The notes under the pieces are model-generated. The model had not been told where the DNA came from. It searched no databases and saw nothing but the letters and a program-made list of their open reading frames with translations. A program made the position numbers and the translations under genes. Below, piece by piece: positions 132-48,131 of a stretch of 64,000 bases of DNA (position 1 is the stretch's first letter; each line of letters opens with the position of its first letter). The DNA is from Bordetella sp. 02P26C-1 (GTDB lineage Bacteria; Pseudomonadota; Gammaproteobacteria; Burkholderiales; Burkholderiaceae_B). Where the stretch lies: NCBI RefSeq assembly GCF_009763255.1, contig NZ_WSJB01000010.1, forward strand, positions 1 through 64,000, in the 5' to 3' direction.

Positions 132-1514
132 GGGGTCCCGCTCGTCGCGGGCCAGCACGCGCGCGAGTTCCACGACGACTTGTTTACGCCGCTCGTCGTC
201 CTCGTGGCCTTTGTTCAAGGCCGACCATTCCGGGCGGCTGCGGGCTTCCTTGAGCGCCTTGGGCAATCGGGCCGAGCGCCAGGCATCATCGGCGGGCGTG
301 TCCAGCCTCACAGGCTCGCGAGCGGCATGGCCGCGCCGATCCAGGGCCTCGATCAATTGCCGCTGGCGCAAGGCCAGCAGGCGCAAGATCGCATCGTCGA
401 CGGTGATTTCGCGATAGCCACGCAGCTTGCCCAGCAAACGGCCTCCCAGCCGTTCCACTCCCTGCCACAGACCGCCCGCGGCCGCGCCGATCAGCATACC
501 CGTGCCCAGGCTTAACCCCGCGCTCAGCATATCGACCGCGGCACCGGCCATGGCGCCAGCGGCCATGCCCGTGCCCAGGCGGATACCCATATCCTTGATT
601 GCCTGCGGGTGAAACAGATCCATGCCCCAACGCATATCGACTAAGGGCAAATCGTTGTCGGCGTAGTCGTTGCGATGGAAGTTATAAAGCGCGAGCAAGG
701 CATCGACGCACGCCTGTTCGCGGCGCCGCACACGCGCGCGCAAGGCTTCTGCCTGACTTTTCAGCGCTTCTTCGTCGGCGGGGCTGGTCACGCGCAGCGC
801 GGCGACATCGATCAACAGATCCGCGGCCAGTTGCCATGCGGCCTGGCGCCGCTCTTCTCGCTCGCGCATCAGCACATCCGCGAGACGATGCAGCGTCTGC
901 GCATGTCGATCCAGCAGCACCGCCAATTTCGCATACAGCTGGTGTTCGCCATCCAGCGGCGGTGCAATGGTGTCGAATTCGAGCGCCGCGTGCAGCCCCA
1001 GGCGCGCCATGGCATCACGCCATTCATCGGCGCGGTGATGTGGGGCGTTAACGAAGTTCAGCACCGGCAGCAAGGGCCGGCCGCAGGCTGCGAGCAGAGC
1101 GAGCTCGTCGCGGTGTTTGCTCAACACGGGGTCGCGGGCGTCAATCACGTACAAGGCGGCGTCGCAATCGAGCATCTTGGTGAGCACGCGCGCTTCCTGC
1201 TCATAACGGCGATGTGCTTCGGGCGAATCGAGGAAACGGCGAATACGCGCCGGGCCATCGCGGCGGGTATCGGGGTCGTCCAGGCGCTCCAGATATTCCA
1301 AGAGCGCGATACTGTCTTCCATGCCGGGCGTATCGAACCATTCGAGCGCGGGCTTGCCGTCGAGGCTCAAACGGGCGCCCTCGACATGGCGGGTGGTGCC
1401 AGGGCTGTCGGCCACCTCGCCAAAATCGCTTCTACGCGTGAGCGTGCGCAAGAGCGAAGTCTTGCCCGTATTCGTGTGACCGACCACGGCGATCTTTAGC
1501 ATCGCATCAGTCAT
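117..1514 (-). CDS. DUF3482 family GTPase
   Basis: 465 aa. An N-terminal P-loop GTPase domain shows G1 GHTNTGKTS (residues 12-20), Thr40/41 as the probable G2, and G3 DTPG (61-64). The usual G4 NKxD is not visible; the equivalent stretch reads LNFVN, so nucleotide specificity may be set differently. The second half matches the DUF3482 layout: a helical charged region, a Gly/Ala-rich hydrophobic patch around residues 310-350 that could insert into membrane, and a basic C-terminus. The ATG (1512-1514) lies inside the end of the DUF2868 gene (8-base overlap), so the two are translationally coupled. The pairing of these families is recurrent in Burkholderiales. Cellular role is unknown; a membrane-associated GTPase is an inference. 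Confidence 0.85.
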   Translation of the reverse strand: MTDAMLKIAVVGHTNTGKTSLLRTLTRRSDFGEVADSPGTTRHVEGARLSLDGKPALEWFDTPGMEDSIALLEYLERLDDPDTRRDGPARIRRFLDSPEAHRRYEQEARVLTKMLDCDAALYVIDARDPVLSKHRDELALLAACGRPLLPVLNFVNAPHHRADEWRDAMARLGLHAALEFDTIAPPLDGEHQLYAKLAVLLDRHAQTLHRLADVLMREREERRQAAWQLAADLLIDVAALRVTSPADEEALKSQAEALRARVRRREQACVDALLALYNFHRNDYADNDLPLVDMRWGMDLFHPQAIKDMGIRLGTGMAAGAMAGAAVDMLSAGLSLGTGMLIGAAAGGLWQGVERLGGRLLGKLRGYREITVDDAILRLLALRQRQLIEALDRRGHAAREPVRLDTPADDAWRSARLPKALKEARSRPEWSALNKGHEDDERRKQVVVELARVLARDERDPSPAA

Positions 1515-2946
1515 TGCCTGACTCCAGCCAGCGTAGAGGCTGATCCTCGTTATGCAGAATGGAAGTTTCCGCCATGCCAGCCGCCATCAGGCGTTCACGC
1601 CAAGTCGTACGGCGATCGGACGCAGGCTCGCGCTGGGGATCCAGATACAGCCAGACGCGCGTTTCACCGGCTAGTTCGGCCAGCGAGGCGATCAGCCCCA
1701 TCGTGCCGCGATCTGGGGTCTGGCGTGCATCGCAGGCAATCAAAAGCCTGGGCGTATGGCTGTCGGAAAGCGCGTCACGTACGCAGTTGCGCTGTTCGCG
1801 CGAATCGAGATTGCCCGCGTTTTGAATGGTGTCGGGCATATCGGCCGGCGGCCACGTGACATCGGCCGGCAGCTCCAGGCTGACCAGGACCGGCTGCGTT
1901 CCCCACGAGACCGTCGCGTCGTCGGTCCGTGTCGCACCGACCTGCGGCTGATGAATGTCATCGACCGGCCGGTCAATACCGGTGGATTGCGCCGCCGGCA
2001 GCAAGCGATCGCGCAGTGCCGCATAGCCGGGCAACGTAGGATCGATGCGCAAGCCGCGCAGCGCGCGACGGGCTTGCAACGTGCACCATATCGCTGCCAC
2101 CAGGCGCGGCAATATGCCGTAGACCACCAGGACGCCGATCAGCCAAACCGACCATTGCGCCTGTGCGGCGGCCGGTAGCGCTTGCGCGCCATCGCTTGCG
2201 CGGACCATGTCCTCGGCGGGGATCGTGAAGCCGAGTTGCGCTGGCAGCCAGCCGATCGCGTGCGTGAGCGTCACGAAGGTATCGGGCTGCAAGATCGTGG
2301 TGGCCCAGACAAAGCGATAGCTTGCTGTGGAGAGTAAAACCAACAACGTTATCAGCGCGGCTGTCAGACCCGTCAGCCACAGTCCGTGACTGATCGCGCC
2401 AAAGAGACCCCGGATCGCGCCGATGCGTCCCAGCAAATTCATTAACGCCTGGGGCACTAACGCCGCATCGGGGCCGCGCGCGAATTTGCGCGTGATCCAT
2501 AGCCATAGACGACCGAGCCCGGTGGCATGACGCGGCCGCAGCAGCAAGGACGCGAGCCAAAGCACCAGCGTCAGGAGGTTCAAACCCAGTAAGGCACCGA
2601 GCGCCCACAGCACATTGACCGGCCGCGTGCCGTCGCCCAAAGCCCCGGCGGCCGAGCCGATGCCGGTCAGGAGGGCAAGGATGAACAGGATGGACAGGCT
2701 GATCAGCGCGCCCTGTCGCCAACGGCTGACGAGCTCGTCCAGGCCTTCACGGCGGCCCAGCGATTGCGCGCGCAGCAGTATCCTTGGCTCTAATGCCTCG
2801 GGCCCCCGACGGGCATGCCGCACCGCGTCGGCGTCTTCAAGCGGGCCCCAGTGTTCCTCGCGCAGACGCAAGGTCTCCGCCAGCCAGTGGTGCTGCCACG
2901 GCGGAATGTCGGCGGAAAGCTTTGTGACAGCGTCAGGCGCGGCCAT
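1507..2946 (-). CDS. DUF2868 domain-containing membrane protein
   Basis: 479 aa. Four strongly hydrophobic segments are visible, at about residues 81-103, 112-136, 190-209 and 266-288. They are separated by a soluble loop (about 210-265) and followed by a roughly 180-residue hydrophilic C-terminal domain. This is the size and layout of the DUF2868 family. It sits between the YkvA and DUF3482 genes: its ATG shares one base with the YkvA stop (TAATG) and its end overlaps the GTPase start. The three were therefore probably made as a unit. The membrane protein could be the partner or anchor of the GTPase. No enzymatic motif was seen. Confidence 0.8.
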   Translation of the reverse strand: MAAPDAVTKLSADIPPWQHHWLAETLRLREEHWGPLEDADAVRHARRGPEALEPRILLRAQSLGRREGLDELVSRWRQGALISLSILFILALLTGIGSAAGALGDGTRPVNVLWALGALLGLNLLTLVLWLASLLLRPRHATGLGRLWLWITRKFARGPDAALVPQALMNLLGRIGAIRGLFGAISHGLWLTGLTAALITLLVLLSTASYRFVWATTILQPDTFVTLTHAIGWLPAQLGFTIPAEDMVRASDGAQALPAAAQAQWSVWLIGVLVVYGILPRLVAAIWCTLQARRALRGLRIDPTLPGYAALRDRLLPAAQSTGIDRPVDDIHQPQVGATRTDDATVSWGTQPVLVSLELPADVTWPPADMPDTIQNAGNLDSREQRNCVRDALSDSHTPRLLIACDARQTPDRGTMGLIASLAELAGETRVWLYLDPQREPASDRRTTWRERLMAAGMAETSILHNEDQPLRWLESGND

Positions 2947-5441: not shown

Positions 5442-5495
5442 TCGGGTCTACGTTAACCAACATTCATATAACGACATCATCATCAGGAGACAAAA

Positions 5496-38899: not shown

Positions 38900-38926
38900 G
38901 AACTTTTACGCGGGCTGCCAGTCCAA
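38900..38926 (+). promoter_or_regulatory. sigmaE (RpoE)-type promoter of rpoH
   Basis: GAACTT (38900-38905), a 16-base spacer, then TCCAA (38922-38926). This matches the extracytoplasmic sigmaE consensus GAACTT-N16-TCtgA, including the spacing of the E. coli rpoH P3 promoter. Initiation would fall around 38931-38934, inside the left arm of the CIRCE element. Confidence 0.6.
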
Positions 38927-38953
38927 TTAGCACTCACATGGAGAGAGTGCTAA
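38927..38953 (+). promoter_or_regulatory. CIRCE element (HrcA operator)
   Basis: TTAGCACTC (38927-38935), nine bases, GAGTGCTAA (38945-38953). This is a perfect match to the CIRCE consensus with perfect arms and the exact spacer. CIRCE is the binding site of the heat-shock repressor HrcA. It lies 44 bases before the rpoH ATG and overlaps the predicted transcription start, a position suited to repression. hrcA itself is outside the window. Confidence 0.92.
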
Positions 38954-38997: not shown

Positions 38998-39882
38998 ATG
39001 AATCAACCCGGTAGCTCGTTGGCCCTTACTGGCAACGCCCTGGCGTTGGCCGTTGCCAATCCGGGCTCGCTAGGCACCATCGAGGCCTATATTTCCGCCG
39101 TCAACCGTCTGCCGGTCCTGACGGCCGAACGCGAAACCGAATTAGGTCGCCGCCTGCGCGATAACGACGATCTCGAGGCGGCTCGAGAACTCGTGTTGTC
39201 GCACCTGCGCCTGGTGGTGTCGGTTGCCCGTCAGTATCTGGGCTACGGCCTGCCGCACGCCGACCTAATCCAAGAAGGCAACGTCGGCCTGATGAAGGCC
39301 GTCAAGCGTTTCGATCCCGAGCGTGGTGTACGCCTGGTGTCGTTCGCCGTCCATTGGATCAAAGCCGAAATTCACGAATTCATCATCCGCAACTGGCGCA
39401 TGGTGAAGGTCGCTACCACCAAAGCACAGCGCAAGCTGTTCTTTAACCTGCGCAGCATGCGCCCCGATGGCCAAACGCTCGATCGCGAGCAAGTCGACCA
39501 TATCGCGCAAGCGCTTAACGTACGCCGCGAAGACGTCAGCGAAATGGAAGTCCGCCTGTCCGGCCGTGATCTGTCGCTGGAAAAGCAGGATGACGACGAG
39601 GACGCTTACGCGCCCATTTCGTACCTCTCTGACGAAGGGCAAGCCGAACCCACTCGCGTGCTGGATCGTCGTGAATACGATCAGCTGCAAGGCACCGGCT
39701 TGGCCAACGCGCTCGAGGCCCTGGATCCGCGCGCGCGCCGCATTATCGAGGCGCGCTGGCTGCAGGACGAGGGCGGCGCCACGTTGCAGGATCTGGCCCA
39801 AGAGTTCGGCGTATCGGCCGAGCGTATTCGCCAGATTGAAGCGGCGGCACTGAAGAAGATGCGCGGCGCGTTATCTGCCTGA
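38998..39882 (+). CDS. rpoH: RNA polymerase sigma-32 factor (heat shock)
   Basis: 294 aa from the ATG at 38998, chosen for TGGAGGA 7-13 bases upstream; an in-frame ATG at 38938 falls within the CIRCE spacer. It has region 1.2 (LGTIEAYISAVNRLPVLTAEREXE-like), region 2 (HLRLVVSVARQYLGYGLPHADLIQEGN), the RpoH box (TKAQRKLFFNLR, about residue 139) that separates sigma32 from other sigma-70 group members, and region 4 with a helix-turn-helix (LQDLAQEFGVSAERIRQIE). It directs heat-shock transcription. Confidence 0.97.
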   Translation: MNQPGSSLALTGNALALAVANPGSLGTIEAYISAVNRLPVLTAERETELGRRLRDNDDLEAARELVLSHLRLVVSVARQYLGYGLPHADLIQEGNVGLMKAVKRFDPERGVRLVSFAVHWIKAEIHEFIIRNWRMVKVATTKAQRKLFFNLRSMRPDGQTLDREQVDHIAQALNVRREDVSEMEVRLSGRDLSLEKQDDDEDAYAPISYLSDEGQAEPTRVLDRREYDQLQGTGLANALEALDPRARRIIEARWLQDEGGATLQDLAQEFGVSAERIRQIEAAALKKMRGALSA

Positions 39883-39921
39883 CGCTGTTTTTGCCGGCTG
39901 GTAAGGTCCGGTACACATAAA

Positions 39922-39965
39922 ACGGCCTCCTGGGTGTGAGATGAATGTCCACCTCAGGGGGCCGT
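39922..39965 (+). terminator. Terminator-like hairpin after rpoH
   Basis: ACGGCCTCCT (39922-39931) pairs with AGGGGGCCGT (39956-39965) with one G-U pair, extended inside by GGTG/CACC. Only GCCGTTT follows on the plus strand, while TTTTATG follows on the minus strand. It could end rpoH inefficiently, allowing read-through into the downstream RNA element. Confidence 0.5.
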
Positions 39966-40117
39966 GCCGTTTACACACGGCCTATGGCTTACTGCGGTGC
40001 TCTACGGGCACGCCCATACCGGGAATGGCTTACATTTTGATGCAATTTCTAGCCCCGTAATGGTCCCGATCTGGAAACTAAATTGCCGTAAACGTGACTA
40101 ACCACTGTAGACGACAA
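39966..40117. other. Intergenic stretch between the rpoH hairpin and the candidate sRNA
   Basis: No coding frame is supported. A small palindrome GCCGT-TTACAC-ACGGC (39966-39981) follows the rpoH hairpin. A 9-base direct repeat ATGGCTTAC occurs at 39984-39992 and 40025-40033. A weak promoter-like pair TTGCCG (40083-40088) and TGTAGA (40106-40111) with 17-base spacing points toward the sRNA candidate. Confidence 0.35.
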
Positions 40118-40227
40118 TCGCCGTTCACGGCACATGTAGTCTTGCATCCGTTTCGGCTTCTCCTCTTCCCCTCCCCTAAGAAACGGATGCTTGCAGGGCA
40201 CCTCGCATATCGGTGCCCTATTTTTTT
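40118..40227 (+). ncRNA. Candidate small RNA with C/U-rich anti-Shine-Dalgarno loop
   Basis: Two structures in tandem. GCATCCGTTTC (40144-40154) and GAAACGGATGC (40180-40190) form a perfect 11-bp stem. Its 25-base loop (40155-40179) is almost only C and T, with TCTCCTC and CCCCTCCCC, the complement of Shine-Dalgarno sequences. Four bases on, AGGGCACC (40195-40202) and GGTGCCCT (40212-40219) form an intrinsic terminator followed by A and seven T. No T run exists on the opposite strand, so the RNA reads rightward. The 5' end is a guess from a weak promoter; it could also be the processed 3' end of the rpoH mRNA. No protein-coding frame explains it. Confidence 0.6.
40195..40227 (+). terminator. 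Strong intrinsic terminator of the sRNA candidate
   Basis: An 8-bp perfect stem AGGGCACC/GGTGCCCT with a 9-base loop, followed by ATTTTTTT (40220-40227). It ends 20 bases before the 3' end of the convergent phosphodiesterase gene. Confidence 0.9.
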
Positions 40228-40247
40228 GCCTGCTCGCCCTGGGTCCG

Positions 40248-41063
40248 TCAGGCCGCCTGTGACCTCGTCTGCACCGCCTGCCACGCTGCCGCGCCGATAC
40301 GACGCACGCCCGTGGCAAACGAGCCGTCCTGATAAAGCTTTAACCAGCGGTAGCCGGGTGGCGACGGGTCGATCGCATGTTTGCCATCGCGAACAGTAAA
40401 TTGAAAACAGGTCGAAGGCGTCGCCAGCAGACGCAGATGATGGCGGCGGCGATCCAGCGCCTGATGCACATGACCCCACAGCAGCACGCGCGTGCGCGGC
40501 AGCGCGGCCAGGCGCTGAAACAGCGTAGACGCGTTTTCCAACATCATGGTGTCGGTAAAGCCGCTGGCGACTTGGATAGGATTGTGATGCAGGGCCACCA
40601 GCACATGACGATCTTGATCGCCGGCTGCGGTTTCCAATAAATCCAGCTGTTCATCGCTGAGATATCCTGCGTTCGAGCCCGGAATGGTGGAATCCAGCAT
40701 CACGACGCGCCACGCGCCGATATCGACCACAGGGTCGGTCCAGGGTCCCAGCACCTCGCGCATCACCAGGGGATCATCATGGTTGCCGGGCAGACAACGC
40801 ACAGGCCAGTTTGTTTGCGCCAATACCTTTTGTAGACGTTCGTAGGCACACGGCGAACCATCTTGCGACAGATCCCCGGTGGCCAGCACCAGATCCGGGC
40901 GATGCCCGTTCGCGCGCACCAGATCGATCACCGCGCGCAGACTGGCATCGGTGTTGACATGGCACATTTCGCTTTCCGGCTCGGCCATCAAGTGCAAATC
41001 GGTGAGTTGTACCAACAGCTTGGGCGCCTCGGCACGGACAGAGCTGGAATGTGAAGCCTTCAA
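40248..41063 (-). CDS. CpdA-like 3',5'-cyclic AMP phosphodiesterase (metallophosphoesterase)
   Basis: 271 aa. All metallophosphoesterase motifs are present: QLTDLHLM, ATGDLSQDG, PGNHDD, ALHHNPI and WGHVHQ. This is the class III cyclic nucleotide phosphodiesterase layout, so hydrolysis of cAMP is the best prediction, though substrate cannot be proved from sequence. The start is TTG (41061-41063) with GGAGG five bases upstream; no in-frame ATG precedes the first motif. It diverges from an antiporter gene with a cyclic-nucleotide-binding-type domain, 184 bases apart, which suggests a shared signalling theme. Confidence 0.85.
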   Translation of the reverse strand: MKASHSSSVRAEAPKLLVQLTDLHLMAEPESEMCHVNTDASLRAVIDLVRANGHRPDLVLATGDLSQDGSPCAYERLQKVLAQTNWPVRCLPGNHDDPLVMREVLGPWTDPVVDIGAWRVVMLDSTIPGSNAGYLSDEQLDLLETAAGDQDRHVLVALHHNPIQVASGFTDTMMLENASTLFQRLAALPRTRVLLWGHVHQALDRRRHHLRLLATPSTCFQFTVRDGKHAIDPSPPGYRWLKLYQDGSFATGVRRIGAAAWQAVQTRSQAA

Positions 41064-47896: not shown

Positions 47897-48121
47897 ATGA
47901 CCCAAGACATCCGTGATGCTTCGCGACGCAAGCTGAGCTTTTTTCAAACGCTCAAAGCCGTGTTGTGGGGAATGTTCGGCGTGCGTCGCGGGTCGGGTTA
48001 TCAAGAGGATGCGGCCAAGCTTAACCCCGTGCATCTGATCATCGCGGGCATCTTGGCAGGCGTGATTTTTGTATTGGTGCTAATCGCGATCGTGCGATGG
48101 GCCGTGGCGAGTTTGAGCTAA
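47897..48121 (+). CDS. DUF2970 domain-containing protein
   Basis: 74 aa. The family pattern FQTLKAVLWGMFGVRRGSGY followed by KLNPVHLIIAGILAGVIFV is clear: an amphipathic start and one membrane helix. DUF2970 proteins are regular members of betaproteobacterial cytochrome oxidase operons, between the assembly genes and ctaE, with no assigned function. It ends ten bases before ctaE, whose ribosome site AAGGAGA begins at its stop. Confidence 0.88.
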   Translation: MTQDIRDASRRKLSFFQTLKAVLWGMFGVRRGSGYQEDAAKLNPVHLIIAGILAGVIFVLVLIAIVRWAVASLS

Positions 48122-48131
48122 GGAGACGACC

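What the first reader, a model, noticed from the sequence alone, without database searches (positions are those of the whole stretch)
40118..40227. Candidate small RNA presenting an anti-Shine-Dalgarno loop, convergent with a CpdA-like gene and downstream of rpoH
The sequence shows a perfect 11-bp stem (40144-40154 with 40180-40190) whose 25-base loop is C/U-only apart from its ends and contains UCUCCUC and CCCCUCCCC. An intrinsic terminator with seven U follows four bases later. A loop of this kind can pair with AGGAG-type ribosome sites; for example AGGAGA at 5485-5490 (TctC) and 48121-48126 (ctaE) are exact complements of UCUCCU. Alphaproteobacterial CcsR-type RNAs use similar CU-rich loops and are linked to RpoH stress responses, but I do not recognise a named family for this one. 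It may be a free sRNA or the 3' end of the rpoH mRNA.
Basis: partly seen in the sequence, partly recalled or inferred. Interest (0 to 1): 0.75.

Follow-up and report, generated by a model that had tools for sequence, protein, structure and literature searches.

The report
Ribosome-site-binding small RNA beside rpoH
This looks like a real small regulatory RNA, the counterpart of one already reported in the whooping-cough bacterium, that offers a C/U-rich loop to ribosome-binding sites; new here is a conserved start signal that resembles those of the envelope-stress sigma factor.

Summary
The window (a Bordetella-type Alcaligenaceae genome) carries a predicted ~120-nt, three-hairpin RNA between rpoH and a convergent metallophosphoesterase gene. 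Homologues lie just behind rpoH across the family: a covariance model finds 141 of 200 genomes, 35 of 43 genera. The C/U core is nearly invariant, while 17 of 18 stem pairs show compensatory changes. No Rfam family matches, but it is very probably the orthologue of Bordetella pertussis CT_521 (PMC12235514), an Hfq-dependent sRNA whose RIL-seq targets share a Shine-Dalgarno-like motif. So the kind is known. The rpoH-3'-UTR and CcsR/RpoH readings are not supported. Not found in print: its promoter, AACT-N18-CTAA at fixed spacing in 87 of 102 homologues (0.22 expected). It resembles a sigma-E (ECF) promoter and shares -35 and 16-nt spacer with a rpoH promoter. In 9 genomes of the genus the signature occurs 1-3 times each, at this sRNA (8 of 9) and inside rpoE ahead of rseA (9 of 9). 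I propose a sigma-E-controlled anti-Shine-Dalgarno sRNA; sigma-E control is inferred, not shown.

The parts
40074..40101 (+). Predicted sigma-E/ECF-type promoter of the sRNA: GAAACTA (-35), 16-nt spacer, ACTAA (-10)
   Evidence: AACT-N18-CTAA at fixed spacing in 87 of 102 homologues, 0.22 expected in dinucleotide shuffles (pattern chosen after seeing an alignment); one of only two matches to GRAACTW-N17-CTAA in the whole 4.1-Mb genome
40108..40227 (+). Predicted sRNA transcript, ~120 nt, probable orthologue of B. pertussis CT_521
   Evidence: fold z -6.14; length agrees with CT_521, ~120 nt; the start is inferred to within a few bases
40109..40142 (+). 5' hairpin of the sRNA
   Evidence: a hairpin at this position in diverged sequence, 48 of 53 segments with z below -1 against 40 mononucleotide shuffles each
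40144..40190 (+). C/U-loop hairpin (stem 11 bp, loop 40155-40179)
   Evidence: 10 core pairs 99.1% paired across 57 sequences, 9 of 10 with compensatory changes
40158..40175 (+). Near-invariant anti-Shine-Dalgarno core TTCTCCTCTTCCCCTCCC in the loop
   Evidence: TTCTCCTC present in 102 of 102 retained homologues; L104, dropped by hand, lacks it; invariant columns
40195..40227 (+). Intrinsic terminator with seven T
   Evidence: 8 of 8 stem pairs with compensatory changes
38998..39882 (+). rpoH (sigma-32), upstream neighbour on the same strand
   Evidence: ORF, sigma-70 regions 1.2, 2 and 4; an RpoH match lies 114-357 nt upstream on the same strand at 99 of 105 distinct places
38900..38926 (+). 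Predicted sigma-E promoter of rpoH: GAACTT-N16-TCCAA
   Evidence: GAACTT-N16-TCNNA in 50 of 97 rpoH upstream regions; SigE transcribes the B. bronchiseptica rpoH (fam) promoter in vitro (PMC3490749, passages)
38927..38953 (+). CIRCE-type inverted repeat (TTAGCACTC-N9-GAGTGCTAA) upstream of rpoH
   Evidence: sequence; same repeat in 87 of 97 rpoH upstream regions; the name CIRCE is recalled
40248..41063 (-). Convergent calcineurin-like (CpdA-like) phosphoesterase ORF
   Evidence: ORF, PF00149 at 53.1 bits; a relative lies opposite in 38 of 106 locus rows

Best explanation
A ~120-nt, independently transcribed, Hfq-dependent trans-acting sRNA, orthologue of B. pertussis CT_521. Hairpin 2 holds open a near-invariant C/U loop that pairs with purine-rich Shine-Dalgarno stretches of many mRNAs, blocking ribosome binding and/or changing mRNA stability. 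Its expression is most likely driven by the envelope-stress sigma factor sigma-E through its own promoter at 40074-40101, so that RpoH (also on a sigma-E-type promoter) and this RNA rise together: the chaperone arm and a translation-lowering RNA arm of one stress response. Shown here: structure, conservation, synteny, the conserved promoter-like signature. Shown by others in B. pertussis: transcript, Hfq dependence, SD-like target motif, target changes in a promoter deletion. Inferred: orthology to CT_521 (by place, size and C/T-rich seed, not by letter-to-letter comparison), sigma-E control, and translational repression in this organism.
For: Structure and covariation. Conservation and place. 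Promoter signature; genome-wide places and the second site in rpoE. rpoH promoter with the same -35 and spacer: with SigE transcription of rpoH in vitro (PMC3490749, passages). CT_521 biology: PMC12235514, section 20 and passages.
Against: No transcript data for this organism. The -10 of the sRNA (ACTAA/CCTAA) differs at its first base from the rpoH -10 (TCNNA) and from the TCTGA/TCAAA type recalled for E. coli; only 15 of 97 rpoH upstream regions fit the sRNA-type signature itself. Genome-wide the signature is not more frequent than its reversed control; only its places are telling. 59 of 200 family genomes give no model match; in 19 of 20 of these that I checked an RpoH gene is present (two of them split or partial; G065 gave only a distant sigma-70 relative), so rpoH can exist without this RNA. 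The duplex test of the loop against start-codon regions in the window did not separate them significantly from controls (p 0.083). In B. pertussis tcfA fell, not rose, in the CT_521 promoter mutant, and PtxA and FhaB protein amounts did not differ.
Confidence: 0.72

Rival explanations
1. It is a free sRNA of the CT_521 type, but driven by an ECF sigma other than sigma-E, or by the housekeeping sigma.
For: The -10 differs at one position from the rpoH sigma-E-type -10, and only 15 of 97 rpoH upstream regions fit the sRNA-type signature; the rseA-mutant passages of PMC12235514 concern CT_532, not CT_521.
Against: Same -35 and 16-nt spacer as the rpoH promoter; the only other recurrent place of the signature in 21 genomes is inside rpoE ahead of rseA; no sigma-70 match in the region, where 1.0 is expected by chance.
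Confidence: 0.2
2. The RNA is the processed 3' end of the rpoH mRNA rather than a free transcript.
For: It lies 114-357 nt behind rpoH on the same strand at 99 of 105 places; between the two the scan gave only one weak + strand terminator-like site at the rpoH stop, with chance giving a similar number over the region (4 found, mean 2.4).
Against: Conserved promoter signature between the two and a 5' hairpin beginning just after it; CT_521 runs at the expected size, and a mutant without its -10 region changed target expression.
Confidence: 0.08
3. It is a member of the Burkholderia 'toxic sRNA' family RF02278 (ncS27/bdhR1, B. pertussis S17/CT_433).
For: Same layout of C/U stretch plus terminator; model R1 scores the S17-type locus at 21.6 bits.
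Against: No RF02278 match at the window locus even at E up to 5; the genome has a separate RF02278 gene at 69 bits between a glycosyltransferase and coq7, the place described for S17.
Confidence: 0.03
4. It is only a terminator region for rpoH, with no trans function.
For: It ends in an intrinsic terminator between convergent genes.
Against: The loop is the most conserved part and termination does not need it; CT_521 had 22 chimeric partners in RIL-seq.
Confidence: 0.03

Closest known systems
B. pertussis sRNA CT_521 (PMC12235514)
   Same: Place between rpoH (bp3748) and its neighbour bp3747, ~120 nt, own promoter, conserved C/T-rich stretch upstream of the terminator, SD-like target motif
   Different: Other species; the passages and section read name no sigma factor for CT_521; its letters were not available for direct comparison and I did not check what bp3747 encodes
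B. pertussis S17/CT_433 and Rfam RF02278 (ncS27/bdhR1, double-hairpin RNAs)
   Same: C/U-rich anti-SD stretch followed by a terminator hairpin; S17 is Hfq-dependent and represses via ribosome sites
   Different: Separate gene in this same genome beside coq7; the window RNA is not matched by RF02278; S17's conserved seed is at a processed 5' end, here the seed is a closed hairpin loop
Alphaproteobacterial CcsR (cuckoo) RNAs
   Same: C/U-rich loops, link to stress (recalled, not tested)
   Different: Sigma-E-like, not RpoH-type, promoter; beta-proteobacterial host; no Rfam family matched at this locus, though I did not check whether CcsR is in Rfam
Enterobacterial sigma-E sRNAs MicA, RybB, MicL
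   Same: If the promoter reading is right, same regulatory position: the RNA arm of sigma-E (sigma-E control of MicA is stated in PMC12235514 passages; the rest recalled)
   Different: No sequence relation tested; broad anti-SD loop instead of seeds for particular mRNAs (recalled)

Membership tests
CT_521 sRNA | Lies in the intergenic region next to rpoH | tested here: met
   place of CT_521
CT_521 sRNA | ~120-nt transcript from its own promoter | tested here: inconclusive
   Predicted only: promoter signature to T-run gives ~120 nt; no RNA data for this species
CT_521 sRNA | Conserved C/T-rich region upstream of the terminator, complementary to SD | tested here: met
CT_521 sRNA | Sequence identity to the published RNA | not testable with these tools
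CT_521 sRNA | Hfq dependence, RNase E cleavage, RIL-seq partners | not testable with these tools
   Wet-lab data are reported for B. pertussis
Rfam RF02278 (Betaproteobacteria toxic sRNA; S17/bdhR1) | Covariance-model match at or above 50 bits | tested here: not met
   No match at the window locus; the member of this genome is elsewhere, 69 bits
CcsR (cuckoo) RNAs | Match to a curated RNA family | tested here: inconclusive
   No Rfam family of any kind reached E 5 at 39800-40350, but whether CcsR is in Rfam was not checked
CcsR (cuckoo) RNAs | RpoH-type promoter and co-transcription with a ccaF-type gene (recalled) | not tested
   Feature recalled only; the promoter signature found here is of another type
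Sigma-E-dependent sRNA | Sigma-E-type promoter at the transcript start | tested here: inconclusive
   GAAACT/GAACTT with 16-nt spacer and nCTAA; -35 and spacer agree with the rpoH promoter, the -10 departs at one base, and the consensus is recalled
Sigma-E-dependent sRNA | Level follows sigma-E activity | not testable with these tools
   Needs an rseA-deletion Northern; in PMC12235514 the rseA-mutant passages concern CT_532

The most novel reading that the evidence does not exclude
CT_521-type RNA is the main noncoding arm of the sigma-E envelope-stress response throughout Alcaligenaceae: sigma-E drives rpoH, this general anti-Shine-Dalgarno RNA, and, from a promoter hidden inside the rpoE coding sequence, its own anti-sigma factor rseA. 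Stress thus raises chaperones, lowers translation initiation broadly, and resets itself.
Probability: 0.45. Interest if true: 0.65.

Novelty: new member of a known kind. Interest (0 to 1): 0.5.

Why it matters
CT_521 and CT_433 are called central riboregulatory hubs of B. [quoted passage not shown] The same paper tested sigma-E control of another sRNA, CT_532, and found none. The promoter signature here points to CT_521 as a sigma-E-controlled one and gives a single-Northern test. No Rfam family matches it, and a covariance model for it now exists.

Tried and rejected
Rfam at gathering score (whole window) and at E up to 5 (39800-40350): no family at the locus. RF02278 membership: rejected. 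The AGGAGA examples: real but uninformative by count. Loop-to-start-codon duplex energies in the window: mean -9.9 (57 starts) against -8.9 kcal/mol (170 controls), p 0.083, on a rough ORF set that probably holds false genes; not used as support.

How far outside the family. A scan for C/U-loop hairpins behind rpoH in 101 usable of 102 loci found 21; controls: 3 on the reverse strand, 0 in one shuffle of each. Thirteen of the 21 are named Alcaligenaceae loci (L150, an Alcaligenaceae MAG, and L219, Taylorella, had none); six (L126, L127, L129, L165, L170, L188) lie outside with different sequence; L161 and L251 are weak. In the 80 named rpoH loci model R1 gave 18 hits: 13 at 74-99 bits and 3 at 40-43 bits, all just behind rpoH, and 2 weak ones on the other strand. 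In the order search 35 of 399 genomes matched: 10 in the family, all at 50 bits or more, and 25 outside, all at 37 bits or less; of the 20 outside loci fetched, 3 had rpoH beside them. Whether the element is older than the family stays open. Of the 59 family genomes without a model match I looked at rpoH in 20; 18 of these gave a usable region behind rpoH, 17 without such a hairpin and one weak (L251).

Limits of the counts. The 106 locus rows came from a BLAST search, which favours homologues with a kept loop; the 34 extra genomes that only the covariance model found were not aligned. Rows dropped before the alignment: L001 (duplicate of the window), L104 (diverged loop), L106 (chance coding match), L043 (no run of five T); 102 kept, 57 after removing near-duplicates. 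The promoter patterns were chosen after looking at alignments of the same loci. The columns were chosen by the motif, so its invariant columns are not evidence. The pattern asks for ACTT and CTAA and misses the promoter of 8 of those 12 genomes' sRNAs. The codon test uses loci found by the motif, so the motif codons are partly conditioned; the fact less touched by this is that 20 of 21 genomes searched have the motif in rpoE.

Papers: PMC12235514, section 20 whole plus passages; PMC11722255, abstract, outline, 12 of 14 passages and section 12; PMC5688073, passages; PMC3490749, passages; others only as search listings.

Full report
What is there. The window holds rpoH (38998-39882), then 365 bases, then a convergent calcineurin-like phosphoesterase ORF (40248-41063, minus strand). 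In the gap lies the feature. With the start placed where homologues suggest (about 40108), the RNA is 120 nt and folds as three hairpins: a 5' hairpin 40109-40142, the C/U-loop hairpin 40144-40190 and the terminator 40195-40219 followed by seven T; energy -43.8 kcal/mol, z -6.14, none of 200 shuffles as low.

Whose genome. The nearest named RpoH is that of Bordetella genomosp. 4, 92% identical. So the window is from a relative of Bordetella in the Alcaligenaceae; this is inferred by matching coordinates and lengths.

Conservation. A BLAST search of 200 genomes of the same family found the DNA in 107 (31 of 43 genera) at E up to 0.1. I examined 106 locus rows, 105 distinct places. An RpoH match lies 114-357 nt upstream on the same strand at 99 of 105. 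The other six: no RpoH match in the stretch at L064, L075, L098 and L104; a partial one 1445 nt away at L080; L106 is a chance match inside a coding sequence by its look. A covariance model built from 57 non-redundant sequences finds 141 of 200 family genomes, 35 of 43 genera.

Structure under selection, loop under more. On the 57 sequences 98.3% of pair cells are standard pairs, 17 of 18 pairs have compensatory changes, and the slid controls fall to 41-49% paired. The loop core TTCTCCTC is present in 102 of 102 retained homologues and the following CCCCTCCC nearly so. Stems that covary around an unchanging loop are what a pairing seed looks like. The 5' hairpin is there too in quite different letters: 48 of 53 segments fold more than one standard deviation better than mononucleotide shuffles.

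Promoter. Upstream of the 5' hairpin stands AACT-N18-CTAA in 87 of 102 homologues and GAA(A)C-N19-C(T/C)AA in 97 of 102, against 0.22 and 0.62 expected in dinucleotide shuffles; of spacings 10-25 only 18 occurs more than once. In the window it is 40074-40101. The form GAAACTT or GAACTT, 16 nt, nCTAA resembles RpoE-like (ECF02) promoters as I recall them. Two observations tie it to sigma-E. First, rpoH upstream regions carry GAACTT-N16-TCNNA in 50 of 97 cases, with 5 at spacer 17 or 18, and B. bronchiseptica SigE transcribes the rpoH (fam) promoter in vitro (PMC3490749, passages). Against this, only 15 of 97 rpoH upstream regions fit the sRNA-type signature with its own -10. Second, in the own genome the pattern GRAACTW-N17-CTAA has only two matches, this sRNA and a place inside rpoE on the coding strand, ahead of rseA. 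In nine genomes of the genus there are 21 matches: 8 at the sRNA, 9 inside rpoE, 4 elsewhere (codon reading). In twelve genomes of eleven further genera a stricter pattern gives 18 matches: 11 inside rpoE, 4 at the sRNA by coordinates, 3 elsewhere. The number of matches is not above the reversed-pattern control; it is their places that are telling.

What is known. CT_521 of B. pertussis lies between bp3747 and rpoH (bp3748), is ~120 nt, is reduced without Hfq, increases in the RNase E and RNase III mutants, keeps a C/T-rich region upstream of the terminator in other bordetellae, had 22 partners in RIL-seq with an SD-like motif, and its promoter mutant had less tcfA and more plrR and bp0913 mRNA; ptxA and fhaB mRNA appeared increased while their proteins did not differ (PMC12235514, section 20 read in full). 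I take the window RNA to be its orthologue; this rests on place, size and seed. The sister RNA S17/CT_433 (PMC11722255: abstract, passages and one section), related to RF02278 (PMC5688073, passages), is a separate gene here, at 69 bits between a family-4 glycosyltransferase and coq7.

What I did not find in print. Searches for CT_521 with Bordetella (one paper), for Bordetella with sRNA and rpoE, sigma E or ECF (12 of 42 papers listed), for bp3747 or rpoH (5 of 983 listed) and for an internal promoter ahead of rseA (8 papers) showed no statement that CT_521 is under sigma-E or that rseA has a promoter inside rpoE; apart from PMC12235514 I saw listings only. The rseA passages in PMC12235514 concern CT_532. 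Supplements could not be opened and two Bordetella papers cited there were not held, so either may be known.

Verdict.

Noticed in passing
Own genome G000:C33:139040-139067 (L226 1501-1528, minus strand); L230-L237, L278, L280, L281, L283-L286, L288, L292, L294, L295: A sigma-E-type promoter signature lies inside the rpoE coding sequence, in the own genome about 270 nt before rseA, and in 20 of 21 genomes searched. Of 111 codons with one amino acid in all 20, 10 are invariant and 6 of these sit in or at the motif (partly conditioned by the motif search). Possible intragenic promoter for the anti-sigma factor.
   Followed up: partly
window 38900-38953: rpoH is preceded by a sigma-E-type promoter directly followed by a CIRCE-type repeat; the repeat is present in 87 of 97 rpoH upstream regions, which suggests joint sigma-E and HrcA-type control of rpoH (names recalled).
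   Followed up: partly
L126, L127, L129, L165, L170, L188: Outside the family, C/U-loop hairpins of different sequence also lie just behind rpoH; either a diverged form of the same RNA or a parallel invention.
   Followed up: partly
Own genome G000:C37:34634-34698 (L108 about 1501-1565, minus strand): Probable orthologue of S17/CT_433: RF02278 at 69 bits, between a family-4 glycosyltransferase and coq7.
   Followed up: yes
window 39915-39985: GC-rich inverted-repeat-like stretch between rpoH and the sRNA, seen by eye, possibly the end of the rpoH mRNA; no run of T follows.
   Followed up: no
window about 40040-40058: An A/T-rich stretch about 17-35 bases upstream of the sRNA's -35 element (TTGATNCAAATT-like in close relatives) is moderately conserved; UP element or activator site.
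   Followed up: no
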